This document shows positions 23,837 to 64,000 of a stretch of DNA of 64,000 bases, one piece after another. The position numbers and the translations under genes were made by a program. The notes below the pieces were generated by a model. The model searched no databases. It saw only the letters and a program-made list of their open reading frames with translations, and was not told the origin of the DNA. Source of the DNA: Pezizomycotina sp. ARF18 (Eukaryota > Ascomycota); the NCBI GenBank assembly GCA_002224055.1, contig AZLU01000010.1:165457-229456 (forward strand). Direction: 5' to 3'. Every line of letters begins with the position of its first letter. Position 1 is the first letter of the stretch.

Positions 23837-23902
23837 TCGCCTAATAGAAATAGCTGGCTAAGCAGAAGCACTAAAATAGCCACAGTTCCTTTGCTCAGTC
23901 TG

Positions 23903-24405: not shown

Positions 24406-24478
24406 GTTAGTGTTATGATGTATTTGAAAGATCCAAAGTAAAGAGTGGGTGTTTTTTTTTTCTTTTCTTATTGGAATG

Positions 24479-24509
<31 letters not shown>

Positions 24510-35446: not shown

Positions 35447-36193
35447 TTTTCAGATGTTGCTTTCAAGTGTTATGTCGCGTGTGCGACATTAGAACTCGTA
35501 TCGATATCATCGATTGCTCGATGAGGTGAACATGAAACGAGCCTGGGGCTCTGGGATTCGAGATTTCGGGAACGCGCTATGCTCAAGCGGTTAAGAACCA
35601 ATCGGTGCTTTCGGCGCCTGTTTGCAGCAGCCAACTGGCAAGGGACGAACAAAAAAGCCGCCGCAAAAGGGACGCATGCCCCAGAGATTCAAAGTTTTTA
35701 TTGCGATTCAATGAGAAGAAAGCTGAATAGTAGCGAGGGGCTATATCGGTTAGATTTAGTCCAGTTTGAAAAATAAATTAGAGCCTTGAAATAGAATGAA
35801 ATTGATGTGAACCCGATGAAGAAAGTAGAAAGAGAGGCTGGATCCATGAATCGAAGGAAGAAAAAAAAGAAAAAAGAAAAAAAAAGACGAAGGACGGAGA
35901 TGCTAGAATCGAAAATCAGCAGGAGGCAGAGCTGCAAAAAAAAAAAAAAAGAAAGAAAGAAAGAAAGAAGAAAGAACTAAATAAAAAGAAAAAGAGACAT
36001 TGCCTCGCTGCAAACTATCGTTTATCGCGATAATAACAGGGCTGAGAGCAGTGAGAGAAATATTGGTAAAATATTGGTCTGATTGCAAAACGATTAGTTA
36101 GATGGAAATCCGAAATAAAATGGAACGGAGCCGTATCTACAGTGTCAAATTAGCGGGGTTTATTACCGCAGTAGCAATGTAGGACTAACCACA
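35447..36193. other. Intergenic between F-box genes B and C
   Basis: It carries A/G-rich low-complexity DNA at 35850-36000, including A runs and GAAA repeats. No gene is seen. Confidence 0.5.
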
Positions 36194-37172
36194 TTAGCGT
36201 ATCAATTTTGACAACACTAGCCGTATCCTCATCGGAGGTCCTTCCAATTCCATAACCTGCAACACACCCGGTTGCTTACAAAACTTCGACATCCAAACAT
36301 CTTCCTCAGGCACCCCAGCGCGCCTGTTAAGAACGACCGCGAGCAGCAGTTCCAGCGAGTCAATATCGCTCTTGAAAGCCGTACAGATCGTCTGTTCCAC
36401 TCCTTCGTCACCCCGCCGTCGCTAAATCCGATCGGGTAAGGAACATACTCCTCTCCCGTTCCGTTATCGTAAAACAGACTCTCGAAGTAAACCGACGTCA
36501 AACAGTTCAAGTACTGCCGCATATCATAGAACGCCTTACCCCAGCGTTGCGTACCCGTGGTATTCTGCAAGCCCATAAATACCAATCGAACTGATCGTAA
36601 ATTAACCAGCGTCGTAAAAGTCCGCTCTAGCGCGTTAGTCCTCACGTGCATGAAGTTTTCAAAAAGAAATTCCTCGACGGAGAGGACAGGTTGATTCTTC
36701 CGGATGACGGCGTACAAAGAATACGGAAAGCTGTAATAACCGCAGTCCCGTATTGCCAGACTACGCACGGTTTCCGAGAGCCTTAACAGCTCGCCGAGCG
36801 CGAGGAAATCTCGGGATTGACTGCCGTCTCCATCGCCCTTGCGCGAGCGGTAGGTAATGTCTAAATCACGAATGCTGGAAAGAAAACCCGTTGGACCCTC
36901 GTTGTAGTCTAGACGCTCATCCAGAGCCAGCATAAGTGGCTCCAGATCGCCGGGTAAATTTTCCCCTCAAGGCGCCTAACGTTGCTGAACGTGGGGTGGG
37001 CCGTTGAATCGCGCAACATAGCATTGAACGATTGTAGGACGGGCATAAACGGCCCATCTTCGTGCAGCTCGGTGGGAGATTTGGTGGGAAAAGTCGGGGA
37101 AACAACCCCAACTGCAGCTATACCCCCACGATCACAATCCCCAAGTATGCTGCACATACTTTTCTTCTGCAA
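36194..37172 (-). pseudogene. F-box family paralogue C, lacking the F-box end
   Basis: It matches genes A and B from the middle onward: MLRDSTAHPTFSNVRRLEGK, GDLEPLMLALDERLDYNEGP, LALGELLRLSETVRSLAIRD, SVEEFLFENFMHVRTNALER, LRSVRLVFMGLQNTTGTQRW, FKSDIDSLELLLAVVLNRR, PEEDVWMSKFCKQPGVLQVM, ending at 36194. I could not find the LPND-type F-box exon or the FDP-R/F exon in the 400 bp upstream, and the acidic tail is short or absent. Roughly 200 N-terminal residues are missing compared with gene B. Two or three frameshifts lie inside. It may be a 5'-truncated duplicate, or the first exons may lie further upstream, diverged beyond recognition. Confidence 0.5.
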
Positions 37173-42200: not shown

Positions 42201-43190
42201 CCAGTGACGACTCCCTCAACGGCGGGAGCGGCGGGTTATCCTCCCAGAACGTCTGGAGTAAACTACCGAAAAGCGAGTTTGGAGCTGGAACCGCTGATGA
42301 TAGCAGACCTACAACCCCGAACGGCGTATATAACGCTTCCGGACCCGCATTAAAGAATAGCGATTTCAGACAGGTGATGCAGTGGTCGCAGGCTTTACTG
42401 GTAGCCGGATACGTCCGCACCAACACCGACAACGAAAAGTATCAAGAGAAGTGGATTATCTGCCACCAAGTACCCCTCGCAGCGCGGTACGACGTAACGC
42501 TAGACCCACGGGTAAAGTCCTAAACTACAAGCAAATCGGAAACAAAGAGGACATCCGAACGGTACCGGAGAAGTACTTCGCTACGGAAGCGGAGCTGTAC
42601 AGGTTTTTATCGTCTACGAGCAATCTATTTCAGATAGCAGTAAGCGTTACCTGCGAGGAATACGAGCGCGCCGAATAGTTGGAAGACGCTTGTACTCGGT
42701 GACGTCGCGGAGAAATCGGGGTATGGTAATTATTTAGACCCCGGTGCGCCTCTGTATAACACTACGTCCTCGCGAACGTGTACGCGGAAACCTACAAACG
42801 GTTGTTCCCGATAATACTAGCGCAGAACCGCGGCGTTTTACTAAGAGGCGGTAACACGCGCTCAAGTCCAACAACCGCATAACACCCGTATCCCGCTCCC
42901 AATCCGTCGTCGACGGCACCGCGTCTATAATTTCCTCCACGGAACGCTTCTTCGCGTCTTCGGCCATCGCCATCGCACTCATCTCCCTCCTCATACTTAA
43001 CATCGCCGTTGCAGTAGCCGTGTACGTCGGCAGCGTCGGTATAGTCGGTTTCGGAAGGCGGTACAGGGGGATGAAGATGCGGGCGCCGCTGACGGTGGGG
43101 ATGTTACTCGCGCGGGTATACGATAGCGATGCGCTGCGGGACGTAGAGGGGACTGAGAGGATGCGGGAGGAGGAGAGGGAGGGTGGTTGA
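39228..43190 (+). CDS. DUF3433 multi-pass membrane protein (two repeats)
   Basis: A large fungal plasma- or endomembrane protein family of unknown function. The start at 39228 reads MSQSARYHPAATSG, a soluble Ser/Thr-rich N terminus. Then come GEWRPKAFSYIYL, a helix ITISFVVCILVAAELVL, FLPTDGK, and the DUF3433 hallmark YQYLPTLVGVLYGTIWALVW with RLEPWYQLSKPSGATLDDSL and FKAFQRRHWAIL. An extracellular loop with many Asn-X-Ser/Thr sites follows, then TM VVEVICGLVLVMMVALMVSV, ASIGALMSLVSRS, and a second repeat: RPLAALLVLVFIVITIGLVA, FSYIPIGISQLFGMIWE, a Cys- and Asn-rich loop, ERFFASSAIAIALISLLILN and GRRYRGMKMRAPLTVGMLLA, ending at 43190. The two-repeat plan fits the family. More than eight frameshifts interrupt it. 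No intron is needed to explain the order. Confidence 0.72.
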
Positions 43191-44013
43191 GGAGGAATGG
43201 TGGGGGGCTGTATGGGTTATGGCGCCGTTGTTGGAAGGGAGGGGAGGAGGAGTGCAGGTTTATCGGGGGAAGGTGGAGCAGTAGTGATTTGGAGAAGGGG
43301 AGGTAAGTGTTTTTTTTTTTTGGGGTGTGGATTGTTCTTGTACGTAGTGCCTTTGTGGGTTTTCTGAAGGGGCTACTTGGGAGATAGTGTATGAGAGTTC
43401 TTTTTTGTCTTTCTTTTTTTAGGTCTTTTGTATATAGTATTGATTTTTTTTTGTAACTTCTTTGGTAGAGCGCTGTATGCATTAAGTACTTAGTTATTCG
43501 TTGTATTTTTTACCCCCTCCCCCCCCCCCCCTCTTCTCCCCTAATATCACCTTTTCTTTTTTTTTTTTTTTTGTTATTTACATGGTTTGTATTATAATAG
43601 CTAACTAAGATCACTGATTAGCTCTCAAAGCTGTGCTCTTTCCATTCCACAAAATCTGAACAAAATCCCACACAACTCAGAGTGAGGAGTAAGAAATATA
43701 CATGCATATCCATTTCTTTACGAATGCTCACGTGATCATCGTGTCTGTATTCTTTGAAAGCTAGCTCGTTGGCTGAATAACCGCCTTCTTAGTATTTGTA
43801 CGCCGCTTACTCGAAGGGCTTTTGACTCAAACAACTGTTCCTTCTATAACATGTACATGTACATTACGTCGCCCAACCCATGTTCCAAACCTTTCAATAT
43901 CCACGTTCCTTCCTCGCGGAGGCGGTTCAAAGAAGGAGCGACTCTAAGATTTCTAGTATGGACACAGTCACGAGATTTCGCGCTTCAGTTTCGCGGTGTC
44001 GATCGTTCCGCTC

Positions 44014-45062: not shown

Positions 45063-46530
45063 ATGTCGGACAAGAAGATCGTCGTCGTTTTTGGAGCTAC
45101 CGGTGCGTGTAACATAACCCCCACTTTTCCGCCCCGCCAAAAAAAAAAAAAACGAGGGGCAGCAATTGAGCTCCCCAATTGAAGCTATGAGCTTTCGTCA
45201 ACAACTCCCACTGACAAAGACTTTTATCTGTTATAGGGACCCAAGGAGGTTCGGTCGTCAACAGCCTGCTGAACGATCCCGTCACGAAGGAGGCGTTTCA
45301 CATCAAGGTAGGCCATTTTTCATCCTTCGCTCTCCTCTCCGTTACACATAGCGGATAGCAGCAATGGATCGGTAGCTAACTCTCGATTCCACAGGGCGTA
45401 ACCCGCGACCCAACCAAGCCGTCGCGCAGGCGTTGAAGGAGAAGGGCGTAGAGCCGATTAAGGTACGTTTGTAGAGCTTTCTTTTTATTGTCCTAGAAGC
45501 GTTTTCGTTTGTGTCCCCGTTTCGGGGGTTTATCAGCACTTCCGAGGCGCCCAAAACCCCTCCCCCCCCCCCCCCACAAAACATTATTTTTGCGCCAATT
45601 CGAAAACAGTGCTGGAGCTTATTATAGCTAACGAATTTTCTCACTATATTGTTAGGCCGACCTCGACGACCCCGCTTCGCTCAAGGAGGCGTTCAAGGGC
45701 GCCTGGGCCGTCTTCGCGGTCACGAACTACTGGGATACCGTGCGTAACCAAAAACCCCAAAAATACCCTCCCCCCAAATCCTCCCGCAAACCTCGCTACT
45801 AACTACGATGCTACTGTGTGAACAGATGGACAAAGCCAAAGAACTAACCCAAGGAAAATCCATCGCCGACGCCGCAAAATCCGCATCTGTCGCGCGCCTA
45901 ATCTGGTCCTCCTCATCAACGTCGCAAAGGAAACCAACGGCGCCCTCCCCAACGTCCACCACTTCGACTCCAAAAACGACGTGGAGCAGTACATCCGCTC
46001 CCACGGTATTCCGGCGACGTTCTTCTACCCGGGCTTTTACGCTACGAATTTCTTTAGTCCTGGTCCGAACGCAATCAACCATGAGGATGGAGTTTGGAGT
46101 ATTTCCCTGCCGACGGATAGTGATGCTCCGATACCGATTTTCGATCCGGAGGATACGGGGAAGTACGTTAAATCAGTCCTCAAACGGGCACTCAAAGATC
46201 CGAAGGCGTTATTGAACGAGAGAATTCTCAGTGGTGAATATATCCCCGCAAAGGAAGTGATTGAAGTAGCGGCGGAGGAATTAGGCGGTAAAGGCGAGTG
46301 GAGGACTATAAGTAAGAAGAGTACACTAGTAAATTCCCAGAGCAGATGCCGCAGTTCGCGAAGGACGAACTGGCGGAGAACATGACGCTGTTGAATAAGG
46401 AGTATGGGTATTACGGGAGGGACAGTAGTGGGAAGGTCGTTAGTCTTGAGGAAAGTAAGGCGATTTGGAGGAGCCGGTGACGGCGTGGAGGGATGTTGTC
46501 AGGAAGAATAAGGGGAAGCTTCAGAAATAA
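45063..46530 (+). CDS. NmrA-like family protein (NAD(P)-binding), copy 2
   Basis: Five exons can be placed exactly: 45063-45102, 45237-45307, 45395-45462, 45656-45739 and 45825-46530, with a CTACTAAC branch site in the last intron. The product starts MSDKKIVVVFGATGTQGG (Rossmann dinucleotide loop G-x-x-G-x-x-G), then VVNSLLNDPVTKEAFHIK, GVTRDPTKP, ADLDDPASLKEAFKGAWAVF, AVTNYWDT, MDKAKELTQGKSIADAAKSA, LIWSS, VHHFDSKNDVEQYIRSHGIP, FYPGFYATNFFSPGPNAINH, DPEDTGKYVKSVLKRALKDP, FPEQMPQFAKDELAENMTLL, NKEYGYYGRDSSGKVVSLEE, ending LQK at 46530. This is full family length (about 315 residues). Four single-base losses (near 45422, 45915, 46325 and 46470) break the frame although every flanking codon is conserved. 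Its role is probably redox-dependent regulation, by family. Confidence 0.88.
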
Positions 46531-46899
46531 AGGGAAAAGGGAATAATAAAGAATGGATGGCAGTTTCGTTTTTTAGGGGAAGAGATGGGTTGAAAAAGTG
46601 CCTTATATTTGAGGGCTAGGGAGACACTATCTATGAATCATCGAGAAACAAAGAATTACAGAAGACTAGTCTACTAAATTTTCTATAAAAAGATGCAATG
46701 CGAGCTAAAGCTGTGTATCCCATTGCTGAACCCTTTCGAGAGATTTTGTGATCAACTTTCTGAACCTCGAACTATCAGTGGAGTCAGGATGGTGGTTCGA
46801 GCTGGCGCTTTATCCTCTCTTTCTCTTTCGTAACACCAATATCTCTCATCATCCTTTACACCGCTTTACGCTTTACACCCTTTCCTTTTTTTGATCTTG
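46531..46899. other. Spacer after NmrA copy 2
   Basis: No gene seen. It leads into the degenerate tandem array. Confidence 0.5.
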
Positions 46900-49534
46900 T
46901 TTTACATCCTTTTTGTTTTTCGATCACTCGCTATCAATAATATTCGGCACCGATAATTGCTATGTCCTCCTCGGTGCTGCGGTCATCCATTAGATATCAA
47001 CCCCCCTGCGGCTTTTTTGGCATCTTGTGGTTCCTTTAGCAGAGCTTATAGTATGACGCTTCCTGGCCCTTGATTCCTTCCTTTATCATATGTTATCTAG
47101 TTATTATATCGAATAATGTGCACAAGTGTCGACAATATCATGTACGTGTTCTATTTGTTTTGCAGGCACCATAGTATTATTCAACGGCTCTGTGTGCTTC
47201 CCAAAATTAAATAACTAGACTTATGAGCTTCAACGAAAGCGTAGCTTGACGCAGGTGTCTGTATGTCGGCAGGGTACTTGCCTTGCCTTCTTTTTTTCGG
47301 TTTGGCGGCATCCACGGAGTCCAGAACTACGATGGAACTATGCTTTCCCTCGCTTTGTTTAATGCGACCGGTATCGGTCCTCTGCATAATGGCGAAACCC
47401 TCTTTATTCCCCCCCTCTCTGCTTTTTCTTCCAGCTCGATAGCTTTATCCTGTTCATCGATGCCTTTTGTTTTCTATCACTCGCCATCGATAATACTCGA
47501 TACTGATGATTGCTATGTCTTCTTGGTTATTGTTATCTATTGGATATATATGTGGGCCTTTTGTTATCCTGCGGCTCCTTTAGGATAGTTAATAGTATGA
47601 CTTTATCCTCTCTTTGATATTTTTTCTTTCTCGGTGGTATGACACCGAGCCGCTGAATTAAATCTAGAGAAGACATAGGTCGACAATACCCCGCCTCGTG
47701 ACATCTGTGGTTATGTTTTGCAGTGGTCATAGCATCGACTCCCTATAAAGTCCAAGGCTTAATATACAGAATTTATCGAGCTTGGACGCAGGAAGCTTTA
47801 GATAAGAGTGTTGTATAACCAGTAGATTGCTCCTCTTTTTTCCCTTTTTTTTCTTTTCTTTTCTCGTTTCTTATCAGCAGCCGCGCGAGGGTACTGGTGA
47901 TTTATATATCGCCCTAATCCCTGTATCAATCTACCGTAGCTTTTGCTAAGTATCCCGTGGATTCTTAAGCTGAGTTGATAATATGGCGCGGCGCACGTTC
48001 TCTGATTCTTTTTTTCGATGATATGGCATGTGGGCACTTGGACGGGAATGGACGCTATCGGGTCTCGCTCGCATCTTTGGTGATGTTTTGCGGTGACCGT
48101 AGTATCTGATCCTTCCGGTCTGGTAATTAAATGCTAGATTTATCACGTGGGGAGGCGGGCAGTTCAATGCAGGTGTTTGTATATTCGGTAGTCTTCCCGC
48201 CTGTTCTTTTTTTGGGGGGTTTTGACGGTGTATCGACGGTATCCCTATCAGAGGTATTTCGGTCTCAGGGAACTGAATGTATGGGTTGTGTGGGCCCAGT
48301 AAGGGTTTTTATAGTCGGGTAAAATGAAGCCATACAGTCCGCCTCCGTTCTCCACTAAGTATGGGGATTGTACGCGTTGTGGTTTTCGTTATCTGCGGGC
48401 GCCTTTAAGCTTGTTTAATACTATGATAGCGTTCCGAATTCCCTGTCTTTTCTCGATCATGCGAACCCTTTTGGTTTCGTTGCTTTTATCTAAGGTTCCG
48501 GTTGGAAAGAATATAGTGTCTTTCTTCGACATCCGTACGGTGATTCGAGTATGAAGCGCGAATTGGAATTCTAGCTCTAATGCTGGATTTATCATATTCC
48601 CCTGTGCAAGGAGATTTTATACAGGCGTCGGTATGTTTGCTGGCTTGGGGCTCGTTTTTGGGTCTGACGGTGCATCGATGTCGTCTCCACCCGTAACATT
48701 TTCCCATCACGAGAACTGGTGTATCGCGTGTCGATCTGTGCTGGGGTTTGAATTACGTGAAAATACGACTGTGATATATTCTTCTGGTTTTCTGTCAAGT
48801 ATGGAACCAGTCGTAAGACTTTCATCACCTTTTAGCTCTTTTACAATTTTGCCCTCCTTCCACGGTATATCACTTTCTTCGTTTCCTATTTCCCTCGATT
48901 ATCAAACCGGGTACGTATGCGATTATTTGGTTTTGCTTACTTATATCAGAGATCCGATGAGAAAAAGGGAATATCGTTCCCCGGTTTGTAACGGTGTGAT
49001 GATTCGACTATCGAAACCCTATTGAATTCTAAGCTAAATTTATCATCTCCGACGAGAGCTTGAGAGTGTAACTTAATACAGCCAGCTATATTACTGATGC
49101 CTTAACCTTGTCTTTAATTGCGCGTGACGAAATGTATCGGTGCTGATCTCCTTGATGACATTTTCGATTACGAGAAATGAAGTCGTATCGGCCGAGCGGG
49201 TGGCGATATCTACGTAAAAATCCTACTATGTTCTCCTGGCTCTCCATTGGATACAGACATTTATCACAGTTTTCGTTATCTTGAATTTCCTATACCCCTC
49301 GTCATGATATGTAGCGGTGCTCCGGAGTCTTTTGTTTTCATCAGTGATATAACGTGCTGTTGGCCTTCGTAATCGACGAAAAAACTATGCGTAAAGTGCA
49401 GCATCTTTTCTTTTTTTTCTTGCGGCAATATCGTCGTCAGGGCCTTTTTAGTTAGAGACTTTAATCGTAATTTATCGACTTCGGGTCTAAGGAAGTTAAT
49501 GCAGGTGGTATCCGTATATTTGCTGGTGTTTTTT

Positions 49535-49539
<5 letters not shown>

Positions 49540-49566
<27 letters not shown>
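49540..49566. repeat. Poly(T) tract, 27 nt
   Basis: It lies just before the GACGGTGTATC motif of one array unit. Confidence 0.95.
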
Positions 49567-49571
<5 letters not shown>

Positions 49572-52500
49572 GACGGTGTATCGACATTGACCCCGCCAAT
49601 GTTCCTTCAGTTGAGAAGAGTAAGTAGTAGTATCTCGTTAAGCGGGATTTTCCATACTTGCGTAAAAATAGAACTATGTACTCCTCTTCGCTGATGGAGA
49701 CATGTCATGGCTTTCGTTGTGTGGTGGCTCTTTTACCGCGTTTCTTCCTACCCTGTTTTCCTCGATTACGGTTATCGTTTGGTTTCTCCACTCTATCGAT
49801 ATCCGATGCGGAAAACAAAACAATATTATTTGCGGGGTGAAATAACCGTGACTCGAGCATCGAGCGTGATGGTTTGAAGACTTGAATGCTAGATTTATCA
49901 TAAGTGGCAAGAGGAGATTTGATAGCAGCTGTGCATATGACTCGCGGGTTTCCCGCCTCTTTTTCGTTTTTTTAAATCGGACTTTATCCATATTGGTGAT
50001 ATAGACCTAATTCCGTTTCATTAGGCCTAGATGTATCGGCTTGGGTGAGACGATACTATTTCTTGTTTCTCTAATTTTACGTTAAAAAAAAATACTACTA
50101 TAAGATTGTTCTGCTTGTTTTCCGGTAAGTATGGAGAACGGATCATAGTTTTTCGTGCTTTACGCTCGCTCATGACATTAATATATCTCTTTGCGCTTAG
50201 CTTTTGTTTTAACGGGATATAGCGCGCGTAGTTAGCCGCTAAGTGAGCGATGAAGGAAACTATATGGAGGATGAAAGCGTGTTTTTGGTTCTTGCTGCGG
50301 TATACTCGCTCAGTCCTTCTAGTTAAAGACTGAAAGCCGTAATACTATCAAGACTCAGGTATGTAAAATTTAATACAAGTGTCCGTTATGGCGTTATGGG
50401 TTGGCATGTTTCGTGCTGTTTTTGGATTTGATGGCGTATCCATTATATGGATTGACGCCCGGGGCTCAGAGACATCTTGATTAAGAGAGCTGGGCGTATC
50501 GGCTCGGTGATGCCAGTTTCATCTTTTGAGTTTTACGTAAGATACGACTATGATGATAATCCTGGTTGTTCTCCGCTTAGTATAGAGACTGTCGCAGGTT
50601 TTCGTGCCTTAACCCTCGGTCGTAATATGCACAGTTGCTATTAGTTGAATTTCCGAGGTGGTATACGGCGCTTGATTCGTCACCGGGCAGTCGGCAAAAG
50701 GAAATCTATGAGTAGAGCGTGGCACGTGGCGTCCTTTTGTGCACGTCCCTCTCCGGGATTCTTGATGGTAATATGTCAAGTTTCGAGTTAACGAAGTTAA
50801 CATGGGTGTCTACATGTTTGATGGATTTTCCTTCATTTTTTTTTTTTTTTAAATATTGACAGTTGTGTCGATTTTGACACCCGCCCAGGACATTTCATGC
50901 TCGAGAGCTGGATGTATCGATCTGGTTGATGAGTCCACGTTGGGTTTCACATTGACGTTAAAATACAAATATAGCATCCTGGTTCTCCATAGGATTCGGA
51001 GACGGTTCATAGTTTTCGTGGTCTTACCTTCGGTTGTAAAATGTATCGTTGACCTTGGTTTTGTTTCTTCGTGATATAATGCCGTTTCGTTGGCTGTAAC
51101 GTAGTCAAAAAAAAAATGTTGAGCGTAATTTTTTTTTTATGTTCTAGCAGCGATCCCTGTATTAAGCCCCTTCTGGTCTGGAACTGGAATTATAATTTAT
51201 CGGGCTTCGAATTTAAGGAAGTTCACACGGACGTTGATATATTTTGATGGGATCTCCTCTTACTCTGAACTTTTGACGGTGCATCCATGTCGACGATCTG
51301 CGTAGCAGTTTTGATTATGAAAGCTGGATGTATCGGGCTCTACGAACCTGGTAAGATTTTTCTATTTACGCAAAATAAAACTACGTCTTTCCTTGTTCTC
51401 TTAAGCACGGAGACGGTTCAAAGCTCTCGAGCTTTTACCCTCGGTCGTAATATATATTGTTGATCTTGTTTTCCTGTTTCCTCGACAATGTCATTTGTTT
51501 TTGGGTCCACCACCGCGCAGTCGACAAGGAATATGTTATATTGAGCGTGGAAACTTTTGGTGTTCTTTGCCGTGATCTCAGTATCAATGACGTCTAGTTC
51601 AGAAATTCAACCGTGATGTATCGAGCTTCGAATCTAGGGAGGTAAACACGGATGTTTGTATACCTCTTGGCGGTCCTCTTTGTTTTGCATTTTTTGACGG
51701 TGTATCAATATTTACGATTTTGGCAATATTTTCATGGAGAAAGCAGGATTTATCGAGCTCGATCGACGTGAACCTGGTAAGGTTTGTATTTACGTAAAAT
51801 ATAACTAAGCCATAGCTTTTGGCTATCGTCGCGCGCCTGTATCCCTCGTTCACAAATATGTAAACTTCTCTTGATATTTACTATTTTTCTTTTAAAAATG
51901 GCATGACATGTTTTGTCGGTCATCGCGTATTTTACCAAGAAGGCTATCCTGGTCATCTGCTTTTTGCGTGCTTGTGGTGAATCTCATTATCAAAGGTTTC
52001 CTGTGCGTACCTCAATCCCGATTATAATGGTCAGACGGAGAGGAATCTAAAGACGTCCGTATCCTTTTGCGTGCGTTGGCTTATTTGCGTCTTTACTATC
52101 TAAACGTTTCTTATCTTTGCTGACCTCCTGCCAAAAATATTCGCTTTATAAGAGCCGGATCTATTACTCGTTGTGTATACACTTACCGCTTTTCGTATTT
52201 ACGTAGCACGCAGGCGTGATCTCTAGATTGCCTCGTCGCGGTTATATCTTCGGTGAGGATGTTTTTTTTTTATAAAAAAAAAAAATATCATGGGAATTTC
52301 GTGAGTTTCGTCTTACTGACAAATATTAGTTGCGGGCACGATATGGCGCGTACGGCTAATTCAGGTCTTTCCTCATGAAATAAGGCCTTAATCGGAGTAT
52401 CTGGCTTATATTACTTGCGGATTTTACGACTAGAGGAGAGAAATTTATGGCTTAGACCTATTGGCGAGGGCGTTGATACGTAGGGTATGGGGCCAGTGGA

Positions 52501-55500
52501 AAATGAAGGTTATTAGTGGGGCTAAGTAGCAAATAAGCTATCGCTTAGTGGCAGATTTTGCTGCCAGATAACAGTTGTTATTTTTTTTCAAATGGCCGCT
52601 CTTCAGCTTTTACGTTATATCACAGAGGATCGTTTTCCGTTCAATATTTGTGCTTTTAACCTCGAGAATATCTACAATTATACTAGGCTTATATTAGCTA
52701 CGGCTAAGAACTTGAAGCGGTCGGTCTGGCAGAGGGTCTTTTGGGGTGCTGATATCGAGGTCCTTCTCTCTACCTCGTATTTCTGCTCTGGTTCTTACAT
52801 TAATAACGATCTGATATCTTGCGTAGTCGGTTCCCGGAAGAACGCTACCGGAACAATTTAAATTTATCGTCGCTCAGCAAATACGAACGGATGGATCTGT
52901 CTATAAGCCCGGTAACTTGCCCTTGGTTCCCTTTCTTTCTTTCTCTCTTGACGGTGTATCAACAATTGTCGCCGTCAATACGTTTTCATACGAGACCAAG
53001 TCGTATCAGATCGCGGGGGGATCGATATCCACTACAAGTTGAAGTATAGCTTTTTGATGACCGGAATGTAGTTATGCCTTCGTCAGCAAGTCTTCTTTTT
53101 ACAGTTTCCACTAATATTGAAATACATAACTGCGTTGGAATGATTATGTGGATTATCACTTTAACCATCCCTTGGCGAATTTCCGCTTGCTTTTTACGAT
53201 CACTTTATAATAGGCGGATAGCGCATAGTGAAATTTATACTTTTAATTATCCGAATATATAGCGTCAGCTAGAGATCCGTGTAAGTAGTATATATTAATC
53301 GGAATTTGCACGATAGCGAGAGGCCGGATTTATCGGTGTAATACTATTATTGGTTGCTCCCCCCCAGTTACCGATTCTTCTTCATCATTTCTACTTTATG
53401 ATAAAGATAGCCTTCCTTGCACGATTTATCCAGTGATCGCCGACTATTTGTGCAATTATTCCATGGCTTTTGACAACCACGACGATAAAGAGAGGATTTA
53501 TGGCGAAGGGTCGCTCTTAATGCCGTTTCTTCCTTTTCTTATTTTCTTTTTTTATTTTTAAACCGGTAACGATTCTACATCTCCGAAATCCGAGATTACT
53601 GGTGTATCATAGTTTAGGAAAGGTGGGAGTGAGTATAGGCGGTTATAATATACCGGCATCGTCCTCTATCTTCAGATATTTAGATATTATTAAACTGCCG
53701 TGACTCTCGGTAGTCCATGCGTGTTGGCTCCATTACCAGTATGCTGCTGAGCTGTCTTCAGCCTTTCTGAATGAGTTTCTGGTTCTCTATCTGACCTTTT
53801 GAATGACAAGGAAAATATTGGAGGTCGATAGTGGTCCCTTTCTTGTAGTGATCCGGGCATCAGTTTCTACTAGACAATAGACTTCATTGCTGAATTTATC
53901 ATATTTGACGAGACTGCAGCTTTATACGAGTGTCTATATGACTATTGGTTACTATACTTTTCTATTCTCTTATTCCCTTATTTTTATGCTATGTTGGTGG
54001 CAGTGATAGTAAGATCCGCTTACGGGAACTGGAAGAAATAATATACATCTGCTTTGATTTTTTATATTTAAATGAGTCTAAATATTACTATGCAGGCATT
54101 GCGGGGGTTTTTTTTATCGCAGCTAATTGTTTTGCTACTTATGAGCTTGAGCGCATCAAATACGTATTCAAATACGTATATACGGGTTTTAAGCTCGTTA
54201 GGCTTGTCCCCTCAAACTACTTAGTATACCGAAACTCTCCCGGGCTTGTATACATGGCAACAATTCCAGATAGGCGCGATATGTGTTCCACGGTACGCTG
54301 CCGACTATGCCATCTAGGAGCAGCGGCTGAAGAGTGATTTCGGTTGCTTATGCCTTTTAGTGATCTCGCTGATGGGGAAACGATCGATGCCGTGGAGTTA
54401 TGGTGCTTGCGATATCCTCCGAGTATGTATTCTGCCCCTTTGTCTTTATTTTACTACGGGAGATCATCTGGATTTCATGCTTTATGTTCTGAAGTGAAGA
54501 TTAATGATGGCTTATATGGAAGGCGATGGGAGTTTACGAAACTTGAACGATGGGGAGAGGGGATTTATGCCGGGGACTCGTTACAAATATTAATACTCAC
54601 TTCACTCTCATCAAAAAAAAAAAGTTTTCCGTGTAGTTCTTGGACTAGTAGCAATCCATTATCTCGTGAGGTCCAACCTTACGTAATAGCTACTACTAAG
54701 TTGACGCTGGTACTTGTATGTTTTGTTAACTTCTACCCTTTTTTGGAATTTTGTCGATATGGTCCTTTTGATAACATTTGGGTTACTAATAATATTGAGT
54801 GTATCTGTCTAGGGCTTAAAGTATGCTGCTGGATTTGCATAACACATTTACCTAAGCATCCTTCTTTTTCTAATTGCTAGTCTATTTTTCCACCGGTGCT
54901 TCCTTCTTACTATTTATATATGCTGCGGGTAAAAAATAGTCAAACCTTTTGGCGTTGAAGTATGGGTTGTGGGCGAGAGCTGGAGTTTATGGAGATTAAT
55001 CTTGGTATGCCCGATATGGCGAGTTTGCTTTTCTCTTGCTTTTTCTCTACGGAGATTGGTCACAGTAAGTTGCATATGACGACTGCTTGATGAAAGATCA
55101 GTGGAAAGGACCTTATTACTTCGAGCTAGGCGAGCCATTGATACGCAATATATGGACGGTTGGTGGAGTGGAATAATGATATATATTGATTGCGGATACC
55201 TAGCTAAAGAGCTCTTGCGTAGTGGGCGGTGTCGGCTGTTAGGCAACAGTTCATTACTATTATCCAAGTACACCTGCGTCTACCTCATTGCTTAACAGAA
55301 ACTATAGTATTTTTGTTTCTTTTCTACGACGTGGACTTCGGGTTGTGCAACTATGGCGGTGCACTTTCTGCGGCTAGGAAACCTAGGGCGATATGGCAGA
55401 GAGGAGATCTATAACGTAGACTTTTTACCGAGATATTCTTTTCTTTTCTTTTCTTTGTCTCTCTCTTTCTTTCTCTTCTATTTTTTCAGTTCTTACACCA

Positions 55501-56006
55501 GTAATGTTCCAGTATCTAGCAGAACTCGCTTGTACTGAGTGTTATTTAAAATTTTCTCATCTTGGAGAGACGCTGGACTTGATTGTTACTTGTATCTTCG
55601 TTAGCTTCCGAAAATTCCGTCCCCGGAATATTTGTACCTATAATAACTACGGGGACATTTCTTTTGTAAGGGCTGGATGTCCGGGTCCTATGACTGCTAC
55701 AGGATTCGACTTCCGTCATTACATAGATATCGTCTTTTTCTGGACCTGGCTCTTTTCCAGCAGTGACTCCTTCTACTATTTATGAACCTCTCCATATCAG
55801 TACAATCGTGCCCTTTACCTTTTAAGCGTAGCCTAGTGTTCGCGTGCTTAGGATTTATAAAGACAACCTTTCGCGAGTACGATATAGGATATACGGGATC
55901 GTGTCATTTTTGTTTTTATGACATGCTGCCAACAATGGGAGTGAGGGGCACCTTTGCGAACGATCCGCGGGGGTGAAATTTATCGCTCGGGCTAGCGGCG
56001 GGGCGG

Positions 56007-56030
56007 TTTTTTTTTTTTTTTTTTTTTTTT
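56007..56030. repeat. Poly(T) tract, 24 nt
   Basis: Uninterrupted T run in the weaker right part of the array. Confidence 0.95.
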
Positions 56031-57009
56031 GGATTAACGTGGCTTGCTCGCAAGCCTCTTTTTATTGCATTATTACTATGGTGGACGTTTTGCTTTTCCG
56101 AGTTATATAATGGAAGTTGGCCTCGCGCGGAGACCTGCAGAGCTATCTCGGAATCTTTGGCTCGCTTAGAAACTCGAAACGGTAGAGAGAATTTATGGTT
56201 CGGAAGTCCTTATCCATTCCGCAATTGTTCCTTTCCTTTAATTGAACCGCGCGACTTAGCACAAACGTCCATATGTTTTGTCCGTCTGCCAATTTCTTTT
56301 CCCACATAGCTTGTTGGTGTTGACTATGCGCAGTGAATTGTTCTTACGGGGAAGTGAATCGGCCGCGTAAATCCGGTGACGGGGTTTTCGGATACGGTCC
56401 AAACATAAATATGCCTCCTTCTGGTTATTGGTTTCCAGCTTAGCGGACTCCTTATGTCATTACCGATTATAGGGATCCGCTATGGCTTGAGCTTCATTCT
56501 AATAAACGGTATGGATCGTTTGCGGTTCAGTGCCTTTTTTAGCAGTGGGCTGCTTTTATCATTTTTGAAGAGCGGCGCTTTTTGTGTTTTACTATCTTTG
56601 GGCCCTTGTGAACTTGCTTTCTTGACGGTGATTTATATGGCACGCTATGTAATGGGATGTAAGGGTTTTTCCTGCTATAGGGGGCCTGTGGGAATTTGCG
56701 GAGTGGTTTGTCGGAACGCGGAGGTCATACAGTTTGAAGTCATTTTACCGAATTTCACAATTATCAATTCTTGTCACCGTTTTTCGGCTCTATATCTGGT
56801 ACGGGGAATACTCTCACTTTCTTCACTTTGATTTGGAGGTTAGATACCGGTGCGTTATTGACCAGGAGGAGATTTCTTACAGCGCGTTTTCTTCCTGAGA
56901 TGCTTATGCGACTGCGAGTTATTATTGAATTTTCGTCGATATAGCGGTCTAATATTCTCCAACTTAGACCTTTGCATAGCTTCTTGCTTCTTTATGGTTT
57001 CTTCTTTGC

Positions 57010-57038
57010 TTTTTTTTTTTTTTTTTTTTTTTTTTTTT
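57010..57038. repeat. Poly(T) tract, 29 nt
   Basis: Uninterrupted T run near the right limit of the array. Confidence 0.95.
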
Positions 57039-57400
57039 CGGGTGCTGTATGTATCGAGCCTTTATGGGAACCACGGTGAAGTGCTCAAGGCCTCTCTATG
57101 GGACGACAGTATATACTCCCTCGACTTAGGGTGAAGGTATCTTTGATAGTCTCCAGTCGCAGCATCCGGTGTTTATAGGAATCTTTTACCCTGGATCGAT
57201 TCTATCACTTTTGAATGCATCGGGATCGGGTACATATCTCCGGGCACTTCCGCGGTATTTGGGTCACGATAGTTCAATTTCGCTATGGGTCCTGGGTCTC
57301 GAAAACTCGAATATTCTATTTATATAAACGGCTTGTTCGGGCTGTGGGGGTTCCTTTCTTATCAATTCTTTTCCCGCCGTTTATGGATTCCGCAAGCCCG

Positions 57401-59981
57401 TCTATGGTGTTTGAATGACATATTTTACATCAATATAAAATTTTTTGGCGGCGCAATGCTACCTCTTTCAGCCGTGCTCAGTTTCGCAATCTTACCCGTC
57501 GTATTCGAACGAACGCATCATGAGCCGTCGATGTTTTCACGCTTCGATTCTTCTCCATGAAGCGGATTTGCATGCGGCGATGTGGCTCTTCGGCATCGAG
57601 ATTTTCTCTTGAAGGGCGGTAATCGGAGTAAGTACCTTATGTTGCCTCAGCGCCCGCCGGGATTTAAGGGACACAATGCTTTTAGTATATCAGAATCGTT
57701 GGTTTTATCTCATATTTTACCCTCGATTGTTCATCACTTTGTACTTCCATACGCGAGCAATATACCAGTTTCGCCTTCGACGCCCAGAACGCGCAGAAAT
57801 CACTGCAGCTATACAATAAGCGAGAGCCGGTTGCGAGGTTGAAAACTATATAAAGAAGCCTTGGTCCCGTGGAAATTTGGCGGTATATTGGCTCTGTTCG
57901 TCTATTATAAATTGTAGGTTTTCCTGTTCGAGTACCTTTTATTATTCTGTGGGATGAGGGGCATTACCGCTTTAATAATGTCTTCTTCAGTGTCCTGGGG
58001 TGGCTTGTTAAGTATGTTTGAGCGTAGTGTAAGCATCCGAGCCTCCGCGGTTTGTGAATTATGAGAGCCGAAATACTTCCCGTCCGCCCGAACTTTCTAA
58101 TGGAACATCCGTTCGGACAACCCATGGGGAAAGCGCGTGGTTCACTTTTATACTCTGGCAGATTTTGCTGTGGGGGCTTTTTTTACGGTCTACCGATTTA
58201 TATGATACGCTACGCGGTGTTGAATTCCATCTTTCCGTAAATGTTTCCTTCCTTCTTTCTCAACGTTATTTTTGGGGCAGCTCCCCCACCTTTACCAATA
58301 TGTAATGTATGTAGTGTCGGTGCAATATGGCTGTTGACTACCTACTGACACCCCAGTTTTTATTCACCAGAACGGCTTTCACGCGCGGTATGGGCTGAGC
58401 TTCTTCCTCGTTCTCTCTACGCGAGCGGCGGCTTAAAACGTCATGTAAGTGGCTTATGTCGGTTGCTGATACACCAGTCATGAGAGGGGGGCCTTTAATC
58501 ATTCTAGCCAAGATGGTTGATGTTCTTGTTTGGAAACTATCAGCTTCTCATTCTCATTCTATTACTTTACTACGACGGATAGTCTACTTTTCACGTTTTA
58601 TCCAACCAAGCGTCGACCTCCGTAAACCCAGTAAGAGGTTTATATTGACTACGCGTTTAATTGGCTATTTGTAGGGAGAGGGCTTAAATGCTCTCTTAAA
58701 ACCTTCTTTCCTCTTTGTACGTAAAATAGATATATATATATAAATGGGTAGGCTGTTTACGAGACAAAATAACCTTGACAAGTTCAAAAGTGTCTGTTTT
58801 ACCCGCGCAGATTTCAGATTCCATAGAATATATCGGATGCAATTGCGAGCATGGCTTCTAAAACTACAAAAATGTGGGAATAAGCTCCCTTATAGAAGAA
58901 TATACGCATACTGCAATAGTATTAGATAACCAAGCCATTTGGAGATGTTGCGGCTCTTTTAAAGATGCATCGTGGTGTTGTTGGCCATTTGCCTTACAGT
59001 TTGCCTTACAGTTTGTACTACCACACCAATATACACCAACAAAGTACATAGCCCCACGGTCCCTCTACAAATCAGTATATCTATTTTATTTACTTCCAAG
59101 CATAGTGGCGTATTAAAATCGTGGGGAAAAATTGTTGGTTAATTTGTCCTTTTTGAGTTGACTGGATCGCCGTTAGTTGTAAGATGGATCCATCCCATCA
59201 GAGCGATATTTTCAGCGAGGTTATATTTCGATATATCGCGTATATGCTAACGGGAAAGCTGTATTGATACTGGAGGGGGAGATCTCGGGGACTCCTTTGT
59301 TTTGAGCCAATCTACCGGAGTATCTTTGATCCTTTTGTTCTTTTTTTATCAGCCTGCGGACCAGCCTGCAGAAGTCTTGCACATGATCTTCGCGCAATTA
59401 CACCATGCCGTATCCAATCGTTGGCTCCGTTTCGTCTATATAACTCCCAACGGTCCGGATCCTTTTTCTTCTAAACTACCGACAAGGCTTATCGATATAC
59501 CACTTCAGCTGCGGTTTTGGCGCGGTGAGTATTGGAGTTCATGATCATACGATTATACGATCGCGGTTCGTTTGGCTGTGGATAGAATGAGACCTAAGCA
59601 ATAATCAGAGAGCGCGGCAAGCGGAATTTTTAATATCAACGAGGGACGTATTTATTCGATTAGCATCAGGTCCACCACTAGAAAAAACGAAGAAAAAAAA
59701 AAAAAAAGAAAATATATATATGGATAGATACTTAGTAGGTAAATTTAAGATTATCTCGAAAAGACACAAAGAGTCAAGTTGTTCCATTTTAACGATCACC
59801 CTCCCTATTTGCAGGCGGATACGACTCACCAAAGCTGATACGCTCACGAGAGGGAGATATTCCTATAGTTTTTCCCGCTAGCCTCTCTAGATTTAGCAGC
59901 CCTACGTTGACCGCCCACCTTGATAATCCTCTCTACACATTAACATTACCCGGCGAATTTTCAATCTGGTAGTCGATAGAC
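57401..59981. other. Gene-free DNA before the STAND gene
   Basis: T-rich on the + strand to about 58.7 kb, possibly more array too diverged to follow. From 58.74 to 59.15 kb the composition becomes balanced and a 13-bp direct duplication (TTGCCTTACAGTT) occurs at about 58989-59014. No gene is assigned. Confidence 0.4.
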
Positions 59982-62900
59982 ATGTCCGCATCCTTAATGA
60001 AACGCATATTCAAAAGGTCCTCTAGATCGCCCCCTCAGGGCCTCCTTCAGTCGCAGCTACAATAGCGGCCACCACACCAGCTTCTGCGAGTCCGGCAACA
60101 TCTGCTCCTGTTACTCGTCTTGAAGCGGCCCATACAAACGTCCTCCAAGCATCGCAAACACTCGCTACGACCCTTGTCGAATATTCCCGGAGCTCAGACC
60201 CGAGGCTGCCCGTCTCCACTTTGGCACCGAAAACCCACTCGCAAAGACTCCCGGCAGTCCCCCAACACCGGAACAAGTAAATGACTTGATATGCAGCTTC
60301 CTCACCGCCCGCCTCGGCCAGGAGCCCAGCCTAGCCTCCCGGGTAGGGTTGTTTATGTCGAAGCTATACCCACTTGCGAGCATCGCCCTCGGATTAGGCG
60401 CCGCGGCGGCGGAAGCGGCTGCCTTTGTGCCCGTCAAGGGCGCCATGAACGTCATCTCTGCCCTCATTTCCATCGCCGAGGCCGAAAAGGATCGGGGCGA
60501 GGACTTCTTGAAACAACTGAACAGAATCACGTTTCAGGCGCTGCGCGTGGCGGAAATCACGAAAAAAGGACATGACGTGGGGGAGCTGCTGCGCGAGAAA
60601 TGCCTCGACTTGACATCCACCATCTCCTCTTTTTCAATAACGCGCTCCTCTATTTCCGGCACTCTTACTTCACGAACGTACGTAAAACACTCACGCTTGG
60701 GCCGAAACTCTACTTGGACGCCAAGGAGAACCTGGGCGCCGCGATACAGGAATATGATCAAGCTCTCTTGATTGAAATTACTGTGAAGATAATTGAACAT
60801 TACCCCTTCGGCAGCGGCGCAAACCCCCAGGAAACGAGATCTTGGGCGAGATGCATAATTGGCTACTCTCCTCCTACCGCACGCTGAAAACCAGCTGAGA
60901 ATAAACATCGGCTACCGCAGTCCCGGGACGCTACAGTATTTCCTGCAGATTCCAGAATTCATATCCTTCGAGTGGGCGCCACGGATCCTGGAGCCGAAGT
61001 GAGGGACCCAGAGAAACGGACGCTATGGGTCTATGGCCCCCCGGGATCGGCAAGTCGATCATTTCCGGGTACGTAGTGCAGACGCTTAAGGCGCAACATC
61101 CGGACGCTATAGTGCTCTATTTTTTCTGCAAAGCTGGTCACGATATGCTGGACCAGCCCGTAAGCATTGTCCGCACGCTAGCAGGGCAGTTAGCGCAAAG
61201 CGACAAAGGAACAGGACGCTGTTTGATGCGTTGATGGGACAGGAATCAATCCAAGCGAGGAACGGAGCAGCGTGGGATGGTTGTTCGAGGTTCTGCTTCG
61301 AGACGCTGTAAATAACTTGGAGAAGGAGAAGACGGTATTCGTCGTGTTGGACGGGCTGGACGAATGCATGTCGGCATCGGACTCCGATGGTGTGGAGACG
61401 CTATTGAAGGGGTTGAGAGCACTCGAGCGGGTTCATACCTTCATAACCAGTCGCTCAACTCCCGAGCTTTTGAGGGCTCTGCATTCTGCCGCAGGCGCCC
61501 CCTCACTTTCGAGGACAGCAAGTCCGATATCGAGGCGTATATCGCCGGGCGCGTTGCAGAGACCCCACACTTCAACAAGGGTTTCGCTACATTCTTGCCC
61601 AGCTAAAGGACCCCTACGATAATCCTCTTTGGTCAACCCCGCAGGCTTACTTAGCAAATAGAGCGCAGGGGAATTTTATGTGGGTTCGCATCATGCTGGG
61701 ATTGGTCCAGGACACCCAATCCGCGAAGGAGTTTCAGAGGTTGCTTGAGAGTATCCCGGCAGAAATAACCGGCGTATATGCCAAAATCCTGGATCGACTG
61801 GACCGACAAGGGAAACTAAAGATAGCGATGGCTACGCTCGATTGTGTACTTTTTTGTTTTCGCCAGCTGGGTATCAGCAGCCTTGGGGAACTGGTCGGCT
61901 TCGCATTGGACGAGAAAGTGTTGGATTTGAAGGGAAGTATTGAAGGATCTTATGGAGAGTTCTTGGTGTTAACGCCCGGGAACGAAGAGGCTGGGGTGGC
62001 GATCGTGCATGAGACATTCCGAGAGTATATCTGTGATGAAGCCGCATCTGGGAAGATGTTTGTGAGTGAGTGGATGGCGCATGGTAGGATTGTCCTGGGC
62101 TTACTAAGGTGTTTGAAGACGTACGCGAGGGGGAGGAACGCCCAAAGGCCTTGCTGGATTACGCAACTGAGAGATGGACGCAACATTTCAACGCGTTTTT
62201 GAAAGGTTATGAAAAGCAACTTGGTGGTGGGGTGAAAATGGACGAGACCAGGGAAGTTGCCACAAATCCAACGGGAAATATAAATGAAATTTTCAAAGAA
62301 TCGACGGAGGCCCTCTACGCTTTCTTCGCCAACCCGCCAGTTCTCCAATTCTGGATGCGCCAGCTGGCCTTCCTCAAGGACGAGATTTGGTTAGGTTCGG
62401 GAGATTGTAACCGAATTCTAATTCGTCTCCACGATGGCGTCTTGGGGCTACTCAACTCACAAGCCCTCTCAAACATTCTCGATACCCTATCCTGCGACTT
62501 AAAGTCCTGGCGTGCAACTTGCACTGCTCCTTCCTCGCTCTACCTGGCGGATACTCTGTCCCGCAACTTTATCTCCGTCTGGCTAAACACGAATTGGGCG
62601 TCTAAGCACCGCGCGCTCGGCGCTGTCGCACACGCGTTCACCTTCAGGCGTGCCATGCAGCTTATCGAGCCCCACGAGCGCGTGGACCCGGAGACGTGGC
62701 GGAAGGAGAATATAGGCAACCCAAGGTCGGTTTTCGGAAATGTCACGCTCGAAGAGGCCTCCCGCCCGGGGCGACGTGGTTATTTACCGGAAACATCTGG
62801 CTGCAACTGAAGTTCACGCGAGCGCAGCTTGAGGAGCTAACGGGGTGTGCCGAAGGGGAGGTAAACCAGAGCATATACGGTGTCCAAGCTGGCAATTTTG

Positions 62901-64000
62901 CTTTTGCGGAGGCCGCCATCAAAGATGCGGGGTGCGTGAAAAGCTTCAAACGTGCGATAGAAGAGTTCCCGGAACGCAGTGACTTGCACGAGGGCTTGGG
63001 ATGGTATTACGAAATCGTCGCTGACGATAAGGAGAACGCCGTGCTTGCGTATGCCGAAGCAATGAAGCATGACATTGCGAAACCCCCAAATGCGCGAGGC
63101 AATATTATTGCCTGTCAGCGGAGTTGCAGCAGGAGAAGGGAGAATATGATAACGCAGTAGCGACGTTGGTAAAAGGGGCGGAGATATCCGGGGCAAGGAT
63201 ACCTACGTCTACTGGAATAGGGCAAAAGATGTGTTGGAAAAGAAGCAAAGAGGTGGGGATTGGGAGGGAATCAAGGCGCTTTACCGCCGAGCGATCGCAT
63301 CGGATCCACGAAATTCCAAGACCTATTGGCGAGCCTTGGCAAAGGCTCACAGAGAGACGCTTGACTGGGAAGGCGAAATGAATGTGCTTCTCGAAGCTTC
63401 AGCAAAGGATAAAGAAGGGCAAAAGGACTATGGCAAGGAGCTTCGCTCATTGGCAAGGGATCTTTTAGACGAAGATCTGTGGAATCACGCGCAGACTGTG
63501 CTGAAGGCTGGCATTCAAGCACATCCGGAGCAAGCTGGACTCTACAAAGAGGTCCTGGGCCAACTTTTCCTTGCGACTCGGCAGTGGTCCGATGCCATAT
63601 CCATCTTGGAAAGTGAATTGCTTGATGACACCAGCCACCGTATTAAGTCTTATATTTACAGCGACCTTTGCAAAGCATACCTGGGGGCCGGGGCTGTCGA
63701 CAAGCTAATCGAGGCGAAAAGACTAGCTGAAGGCAGCAGGTATGACCCGAACGAGCCATCTTTCGACATTGCACGCGCATATATAGCGATCGGAGACTAC
63801 CGTAATGCGCTGAAGTCCTTAAGAGGGTATATGGCATGGAAGGCTCGCCGGGCCGGGGACGACGACATGCGGGAGTGGGAAGAGCGCAAGCCAGATCTCG
63901 CAGCGGAGCGAAAGATGGAGGTTTACACGACATTAGCTCTGTGCCATGAGCGACTAGGAAATGAGGAGGAGGCCTCAACAGCTTTTCAAATTGCGGTGGA
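59982..64000 (+). CDS. NACHT-TPR STAND (NLR-like) protein, 3' end outside window
   Basis: STAND NTPases of this type act in fungal self/non-self recognition and regulated cell death. The likely start at 59982 reads MSASLMKRIFKRSSRSPPQG. Then come an Ala/Thr/Pro-rich stretch, a helical N-terminal domain (SKLYPLASIALGLGAAAAEA, FVPVKGAMNVISALISIAEA, EKDRGEDFLKQLNRITFQAL, LLYFRHSYFTNVRKTLTLGP), and a NACHT domain with P-loop GPPGIGKS (about 61033-61057) and Walker B VFVVLDGLDEC (61329-61367). Next are TFITSRS, ANRAQGNFMWVRIMLGLVQD, LLESIPAEITGVYAKILDRL, a winged-helix-like segment with AIVHETFREYIC, a middle helical part, and TPR-like repeats from about 62.85 kb to the edge (for example FPERSDLHEGLGWYYEIVAD, YRNALKSLRGY, TLALCHERLGNEEEASTAFQ). 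The frame is still open at 64000. About ten frameshifts interrupt it, one within a C6 run inside the P-loop. Confidence 0.78.

What the first reader, a model, noticed from the sequence alone, without database searches (positions are those of the whole stretch)
46900..57400. Hidden 425-bp tandem array covering about 10 kb
A gene-free stretch, larger than any other in the window, consists of about 24 very diverged units in one orientation. Two independent motifs keep the same 406-466 bp spacing over at least 6 kb. No unit keeps an open reading frame, so it is not a coding repeat. Its age and length recall a fossil satellite, perhaps a former centromeric, subtelomeric or heterochromatic block now beside normal genes.
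Basis: seen in the sequence. Interest (0 to 1): 0.75.

Follow-up and report, generated by a model that had tools for sequence, protein, structure and literature searches.

The report
Decayed tandem repeat in fungal DNA
A gene-free stretch of a fungal chromosome is the worn-down remains of a roughly 425-base sequence once copied head to tail; it is real, no second place was found where we could search, and nothing seen marks it as a centromere, a chromosome end or a working gene.

Summary
Nine good units of 402-459 bp, all on the + strand, fill 48125-51998 at 45-62% pairwise identity; weaker relics reach from about 46859 to 58767. A profile from five units finds four others at E 1e-12 to 3e-18. 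Seven flanking relics pass an iterated search; shuffled flanks gave 1 hit in 25 runs, other DNA of the genome 2 in 15. "24 units" is extrapolation: about 9 clear and 8 partial copies are seen. So it looks local, not a genome-wide satellite, telomeric or centromeric. The core has no RIP signature, Rfam match, consensus RNA fold or gene-like codon use. Neighbouring units are most alike, as expected from unequal exchange. Whether the founding unit was coding is open: one + frame is poor in stops and G-rich at codon position 1 in the best-scoring alignment (0 of 1000 simulations match both), but this fails with other alignments and without alignment. Most likely a fossil tandem array without present function; ordinary in kind.

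The parts
46859..48124 (+). left, more diverged units (starts near 46859, 47412, 47758)
   Evidence: self-BLAST 46859-47074 / 47412-47618 66.5% E 5e-17, 47565-47851 / 47951-48213 E 8e-8; iterated-profile hits 47235, 47770; cyclic profile 126 against shuffles 90, sd 11
48125..48577 (+). unit 1 of the clear core
   Evidence: profile built without it, E 3e-13
48578..49036 (+). unit 2; mostly inside a 156-codon open frame 48555-49022
   Evidence: profile built without it, E 3e-18
49037..49456 (+). unit 3
   Evidence: profile built without it, E 5e-18
49457..49878 (+). unit 4 (with a long T run)
   Evidence: profile built without it, E 1e-12
49879..50326 (+). unit 5
   Evidence: E 3e-13 in round 1 of the iterated search
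50327..50765 (+). unit 6
   Evidence: single-unit query 51172-51592 gives E 3e-17 (round 0)
50766..51175 (+). unit 7
   Evidence: single-unit query E 7e-21 (round 0)
51176..51596 (+). unit 8 (seed unit)
51597..51998 (+). unit 9; 62% identical to unit 8
   Evidence: single-unit query E 2e-22 (round 0)
52037..52204 (+). relic unit
   Evidence: 50 bits in iterated search; E 0.47 with the five-unit profile
52925..53007 (+). relic unit
   Evidence: E 7e-4 with the five-unit profile; 29 bits iterated
53880..54106 (+). relic unit
   Evidence: E 0.017 with the five-unit profile; 61 bits iterated
56254..56426 (+). relic unit, isolated
   Evidence: 58 bits iterated; not significant alone with the five-unit profile (E 0.19)
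58610..58767 (+). relic unit, isolated
   Evidence: E 0.023 with a single-unit query, 64 bits iterated; not among the five-unit profile's hits at E up to 10
46001..58000 (.). T-rich / A-poor strand domain covering the array (AT skew -0.13 to -0.28 in 2-kb windows; -0.08 at 58-60 kb)
45822..46382 (+). NmrA-like gene fragment, left neighbour
   Evidence: Pfam NmrA E 2e-23
60124..63998 (+). right neighbour: coding region with TPR repeats
   Evidence: Pfam TPR on 63153-63998, E 1e-9; no match for 60124-60768 or 61474-62199; coding scan

Best explanation
It is a fossil tandem array at, as far as could be searched, a single locus. A unit of about 425 bp was duplicated head to tail, in one orientation, by unequal exchange between neighbouring copies (inferred from similarity falling with distance). 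Exchange then stopped or became rare, and ordinary substitutions and indels wore the copies down to about 50% identity in the middle and to isolated fragments at the edges. The T-rich strand may be inherited from the unit; the test of this was inconclusive. Shown: the array, its orientation, its extent and decay pattern, no second copy in the searches made, and no RIP (core), RNA-family, RNA-fold or gene-like codon signal. Inferred: the exchange mechanism, the age, and the lack of present function.
For: Units and significance. One orientation: all 7 flanking relics are +, and so are 31 of 31 self-BLAST pairs inside the array at E 1e-4, after pairs of over 60% one base were dropped. Adjacent units are most alike (mean local score 464 one unit apart; 407, 410, 365, 326 at 2 to 5 apart; 357, 341, 295 at 6 to 8; permutation p 0.004). 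No RIP in the core: TpA/ApT 0.83 and 0.88, (CpA+TpG)/(ApC+GpT) 0.96 and 0.97, composite -0.13 and -0.09 at 48-52 kb. Not coding today: indel lengths 138 / 248 / 197 for 0 / 1 / 2 modulo 3 and no period-3 in conservation, no codon-use difference between frames, no 3-base periodicity in the core. No RNA: Rfam none, alignment fold -0.8 kcal/mol, no tRNA. Place.
Against: The best-scoring alignment has a + frame short of stops and G-rich at position 1, which a never-coding repeat would not be expected to have. Two 15-bp blocks are well kept: the second-best block (0.862) exceeds all 194 identity-matched neutral simulations (maximum 0.844), although the best block and the variance do not. In the thin right part (52-56 kb) the two simple RIP indices pass the usual limits, with composite +0.05 and +0.06, as they do in several other windows outside the array, so old RIP there is not excluded. 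Searches of the own genome were by DNA, short patterns and proteins only, so distant copies elsewhere could be missed.
Confidence: 0.6

Rival explanations
1. The array is the fossil of a coding tandem: each unit descends from about 140 codons of a protein (a repeat domain of one large gene, or a small gene family), now full of stops and frameshifts.
For: In the nine-unit alignment one + frame has 27 stops in 1173 codons against 71/1161 and 69/1164 in the other + frames and 4.0-5.0% in the minus frames; G at codon positions 0.283 / 0.208 / 0.186. In 1000 simulations of non-coding descent each is rare (0.004 and 0.003) and both in one frame 0 of 1000. That alignment predicts left-out units best (993 bits against 929, 922, 857), keeps the frame after profile realignment (21/1139 against 69/1125, 65/1128), and the iterated-profile alignment of 16 hits shows it weaker (37/1207 against 77/1206, 63/1202). 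Thirteen loose hits outside the core (E up to 100): 9/318 against 21/321, 16/317. A tandem gene family of equal divergence 22 kb away shows the same kind of signal, stronger: 8/867 against 35/863, 47/865.
Against: With two other alignment settings the + frame-path test gives nothing (P 0.41 and 0.47; the favoured one 0.02; 200 simulations), while the minus strand scores somewhat high in all three (P 0.015, 0.035, 0.075). The three other settings, also after profile realignment, show no continuous depleted frame, nor do the 9 longest rows of the iterated alignment (37/948, 67/952, 38/952). Third codon positions are not clearly less conserved (P 0.25). Codon use does not single out the frame (the two stretches scored there as presumed gene pieces were near zero too, so that test has little shown power). 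The best conservative-replacement score is in a minus frame (P 0.03). Without alignment there is no + strand ORF excess and no 3-base periodicity in the core; on the minus strand open runs are slightly long (core P 0.033 and 0.060 in 2 of 3 measures, whole array 0.030 in one). Frame is not kept within or between units. Pfam best E 0.028, below cut-off, for 10 pieces; PHROGs none for 4; PDB none for the 8-piece alignment, one chain at E 1.2 for one piece; no own-genome relative.
Confidence: 0.25
2. The T-rich stretch is a working non-coding element, either a long + strand transcript or an array of protein-binding sites, with units kept only at short motifs.
For: Well-kept blocks TGACGGTGTATCGAT and AATTTACGTAAAAAT; GTATCG 12 against 2.4 expected and TTATCA 11 against 3.1 on the + strand of 46500-54100; 5' splice-site-like words 8 against 2.5 on the + strand of 54100-59000. 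AT skew of about -0.2 over 12 kb, against -0.03 to +0.08 in the 10-kb windows that end before 46 kb and -0.08 to 0 in three fetched 10-kb stretches.
Against: Block conservation is only partly beyond neutral simulation; shared ancestry alone gives motif enrichment. Splice-like words are not enriched at 46500-54100. One of 30 fetched 3-kb loci elsewhere has a skew of -0.20 too. No consensus RNA fold. The substitution pattern does not show a clear ongoing strand bias (inconclusive). No expression or binding data.
Confidence: 0.1
3. The whole is an artefact of T-rich, low-complexity sequence.
For: The largest short-word lag peaks (1000 and 1280) fall at the spacings of T runs.
Against: Matches run through mixed-sequence blocks, down to E 5e-36 (65.7% over 452 columns) with low-complexity filtering, and composition-matched shuffles and other real DNA do not reproduce it.
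Confidence: 0.02

Closest known systems
Satellite / large-unit minisatellite arrays grown by unequal crossing-over (recalled general knowledge; reviews PMC8122249 and PMC5615363 seen only as search listings)
   Same: head-to-tail units in one orientation, similarity falling with distance between units, decayed edges
   Different: one locus of about 12 kb, about 50% identity, mid-contig between genes, no second copy found in the genome
Tandem gene family in the same window (six minus-strand units, 15551-24387)
   Same: tandem, about 50% mean identity
   Different: 1.5-2.0 kb spacing and a clear coding signal; no sequence relation to the 425-bp units found (best E 0.32)
RIP-mutated fungal repeats (recalled)
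   Same: diverged repeats in a fungus
   Different: no RIP dinucleotide signature in the core; borderline indices in the thin right part, as in other parts of the window
rRNA pseudogene families in filamentous ascomycetes (PMC5555474, search listing only)
   Same: tandem copies that escaped homogenisation
   Different: no Rfam rRNA match

Membership tests
Satellite DNA array (in the broad sense of head-to-tail repeats) | adjacent copies in one orientation with a regular period | tested here: met
Satellite DNA array (in the broad sense of head-to-tail repeats) | local homogenisation: neighbours more alike than distant copies | tested here: met
   p 0.004
Satellite DNA array (in the broad sense of head-to-tail repeats) | abundant, long arrays or several loci in the genome | tested here: not met
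   no second place in DNA, pattern and protein searches; sensitivity limited
Centromeric or subtelomeric block | position at a contig end or in a large AT-rich gene desert | tested here: not met
   212 and 221 kb from the contig ends, GC 0.41-0.44, 14-kb gap between coding regions
Centromeric or subtelomeric block | CENP-A or H3K9me3 chromatin | not testable with these tools
   no chromatin data
RIP-mutated repeat | high TpA/ApT and low (CpA+TpG)/(ApC+GpT) | tested here: not met
   core 48-52 kb: 0.83 and 0.88, 0.96 and 0.97, composite -0.13 and -0.09; right part 52-56 kb borderline (0.99/0.94 and 1.06/1.00, composite +0.05 and +0.06), in the range of other windows without the array
Protein-coding tandem repeat, living | open frame through units, indels in threes, 3-base periodicity | tested here: not met
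Protein-coding tandem repeat, fossil | one frame with fewer stops than non-coding descent allows | tested here: inconclusive
   met in the best-scoring alignment, not with other alignments
Structured RNA gene array | match to a known family or consensus fold with covariation | tested here: not met

The most novel reading that the evidence does not exclude
The array is a living non-coding element, a long T-rich transcript or binding-site array whose units are free to drift except at two or three short blocks, and which seeds a local chromatin state between an NmrA-like gene and a TPR-bearing gene.
Probability: 0.07. Interest if true: 0.6.

Novelty: new member of a known kind. Interest (0 to 1): 0.3.

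Why it matters
It shows that standard repeat finding (Tandem Repeats Finder listed no unit over 24 bp in the window) can miss a 12-kb head-to-tail array at about 50% identity, so stretches called unique intergenic DNA in fungi may be worn-out arrays. As a dated fossil it could show how fast a fungal tandem array decays, and whether T-rich strand bias is a footprint of such arrays.

Tried and rejected
Rejected: RIP as the main cause in the core; living gene with exon repeats (splice-site and branch-point words not enriched on the + strand at 46500-54100; indels and periodicity); structured RNA, tRNA or Pol III unit (no exact B box); centromere or telomere; relation to the neighbouring tandem gene family or to a duplicated NmrA segment (the NmrA similarity ends at about 46590, before the array); regular three-unit higher-order repeat (p 0.30). 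Inconclusive: ongoing strand bias of mutation (predicted equilibrium AT skew -0.05, 95% -0.25 to 0.16; -0.05, +0.12 or -0.18 by threshold). The coding-fossil reading rose after and fell. In one search a simulated coding ancestor with neutral decay also seldom gave as few stops as seen (P 0.016), so that model fits badly too. A first, star-like test of block conservation looked stronger than the tree-shaped one, which I use. Seven paper searches listed no title on such an array; I saw listings only, and the outline with abstract of PMC3315797.

Not done: taxon of the fungus, related species, expression, chromatin. No structure prediction, no scan of the viral, metagenome or GTDB contig collections and no search of the phage, plasmid or E. 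coli collections was run.

Full report
What was checked. The window is from a fungus by its genes (fungal rhodopsin domain, Agd3 deacetylase domain, NmrA) and lies at 165457-229456 of contig 10 of an unnamed 46.36-Mb, 408-contig assembly. Tandem Repeats Finder lists only short-period arrays. Counting high-identity 40-bp windows by lag gives an excess at 400-459 in 46900-57400 (125, 153 and 71 in three 20-lag bins; at most 16 in any of them in 10 shuffles). The excess lies in the left half; the taller peaks near 1000 and 1280 fall at the spacings of T runs.

Units. A single unit (51172-51592) used as query finds its neighbours at E 2e-22, 7e-21 and 3e-17 before any iteration. A profile from five units finds the four core units left out at E 3e-13, 3e-18, 5e-18 and 1e-12; 40 shuffles of 13 kb give at most 7.5 bits. 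The nine core units are 402-459 bp long as I cut them and 45-62% identical pairwise; their common motif starts 409-472 bp apart. Outside 48.1-52.0 kb an iterated search of both strands finds seven relics over 25 bits, all +; an eighth hit of 2.4 bits was dropped. Shuffled flanks, + strand only, gave one hit over 5 bits in 25 runs. Fifteen runs with other real stretches of about 9 kb as flanks, turned T-rich, both strands, gave two, both -; they used 5 window stretches, 3 fetched 10-kb loci and 21 of the 30 fetched 3-kb loci that lie elsewhere. A cyclic-profile test supports continuity to 54.1 kb (about 13 sd) and is weak beyond (1.2 and 2.8 sd; one of two control stretches reached 1.8 sd). So the array is dense at 46.9-52.2 kb, thin to 54.1 kb, and represented by two isolated relics at 56.3 and 58.6 kb. 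Neither of those two is significant with the five-unit profile alone.

Where it sits. A codon-use scan finds the largest coding-poor gap of the window at 46321-60361, 14.0 kb. The array is 212 and 221 kb from the contig ends (contig 445,091 bases). DNA search of the genome with two stretches of the array found only itself. The first motif with up to two mismatches had 13 matches, five in the array and eight elsewhere, against 3 for the reversed-pattern control; the second, with up to three mismatches, had 26, three in the array and 23 elsewhere, against 20. Profile search of the 30 fetched loci elsewhere gave nothing better than E 0.044, at a place chosen by the pattern itself. Protein searches of the genome with two open pieces of the array and one piece of the right part found only themselves.

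How it arose. Similarity between units falls with distance: mean local score 464 for neighbours and 407, 410, 365, 326 for two to five units apart; the neighbour excess has p 0.004 in 5000 permutations; three-unit periodicity is not significant (p 0.30). The closest pairs are units 7-8 and 8-9. This fits growth by unequal exchange, with the central part homogenised last. RIP indices at 48-52 kb are not RIP-like; at 52-56 kb both simple indices pass the usual limits (recalled: over 0.89 and under 1.03) with a composite of only +0.05 and +0.06, as in several windows without the array. AT skew is -0.13 to -0.28 in each 2-kb window from 46 to 58 kb, against -0.03 to +0.08 in 10-kb windows that end before 46 kb; one of 30 3-kb loci elsewhere also reaches -0.20. 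Consensus columns are T-rich (107 T, 59 A), and substitutions between consensus and units predict an equilibrium AT skew of -0.05, but with a 95% range of -0.25 to 0.16 and a change of sign with the threshold, so whether the bias is inherited or ongoing is open. That the bias also covers 54-58 kb fits a once longer array, but does not prove it.

Coding or not. The units are not coding now: indels between units are not in threes and conservation has no period 3, frames are not kept, and alignment-free tests show no + strand ORF excess and no 3-base periodicity in the core (G z 1.1, T z -1.5), while a nearby gene family (5.7, 4.4) and the right-hand genes (9.0, 3.9) are clear. Codon use does not single out a frame, though that test has little shown power. 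A coding ancestor is possible: in the first alignment one + frame has 27 stops in 1173 codons against 71/1161 and 69/1164, with minus frames at 4.0-5.0%. Non-coding descent simulations give P 0.004 for stops, 0.003 for the G excess at position 1, 0 of 1000 for both, and 0.25 for third-position conservation. The same frame has the highest share of synonymous differences (P 0.013), but the best conservative-replacement score is in a minus frame (P 0.03). That alignment predicts left-out units best, and the 16-row profile alignment agrees in a weaker form, but its 9 longest rows do not, and three other alignment settings show no continuous depleted frame, before or after profile realignment. The frame-path test gives P 0.02 for the favoured alignment and 0.41 and 0.47 for two others; the minus strand scores somewhat high in all three (P 0.015, 0.035, 0.075), and minus-strand open runs are slightly long. 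I leave the coding origin open at about one in four.

Function. Rfam has no match at gathering score over the window or at E up to 1 over 46800-59000, no tRNA is found, and the alignment has no consensus fold to speak of (-0.8 kcal/mol, 4 pairs, 3 of them with a change on both sides in at least one unit). Two 15-bp blocks are well kept, TGACGGTGTATCGAT and AATTTACGTAAAAAT. Against tree-shaped neutral simulations matched in identity (100 and 94 kept of 120 each), the second-best block (0.862) exceeds every run (maximum 0.844), but the best block and the overall variance do not. So selection on short motifs is possible but not shown, and I regard the array as dead.

Verdict. The centromere, subtelomere and genome-wide satellite parts are not supported. 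As a kind it is known; its interest is mainly as an example of how much worn-out tandem DNA can hide in fungal intergenic sequence.

Noticed in passing
15551-24387 (-): Tandem family of six minus-strand units about 1.5-2.0 kb apart, mean identity 0.51, with a clear coding signal; two open copies were scanned and one has a weak sub-cut-off match to a CSL zinc finger.
   Followed up: partly
25245-26384 (-) and 45391-46590 (+): Two NmrA-like regions in opposite orientation, about 58% identical over the best 696 columns; beside the downstream end of each similarity, within about 1 kb, a diverged tandem array begins, but the two arrays show no sequence relation.
   Followed up: partly
30262-30532: Recent tandem duplication with a shift of about 138 bp, 96% identical.
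   Followed up: no
31803-36966 (-): Stretches near 31.8, 34.0 and 36.3 kb are similar to each other (52-61% identity), perhaps another small gene family.
   Followed up: no
40001-44000: RIP-like dinucleotide indices (composite +0.36 and +0.62) in sequence of GC 0.49-0.54, partly coding; no other 2-kb window exceeds +0.10.
   Followed up: no
46500-54100: AATAAA on the minus strand is strongly under-represented (2 seen, 12.6 expected from shuffles); unexplained.
   Followed up: no
53942-54877 (+): 311 codons with a single stop in one frame; no Pfam match for either half, no gene-like codon use and no second copy for 54338-54877.
   Followed up: partly
12000-26000: The branch-point-like word CTRAC is about half as frequent as in shuffles on both strands (11 and 11 against 21.1 and 21.6).
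   Followed up: no
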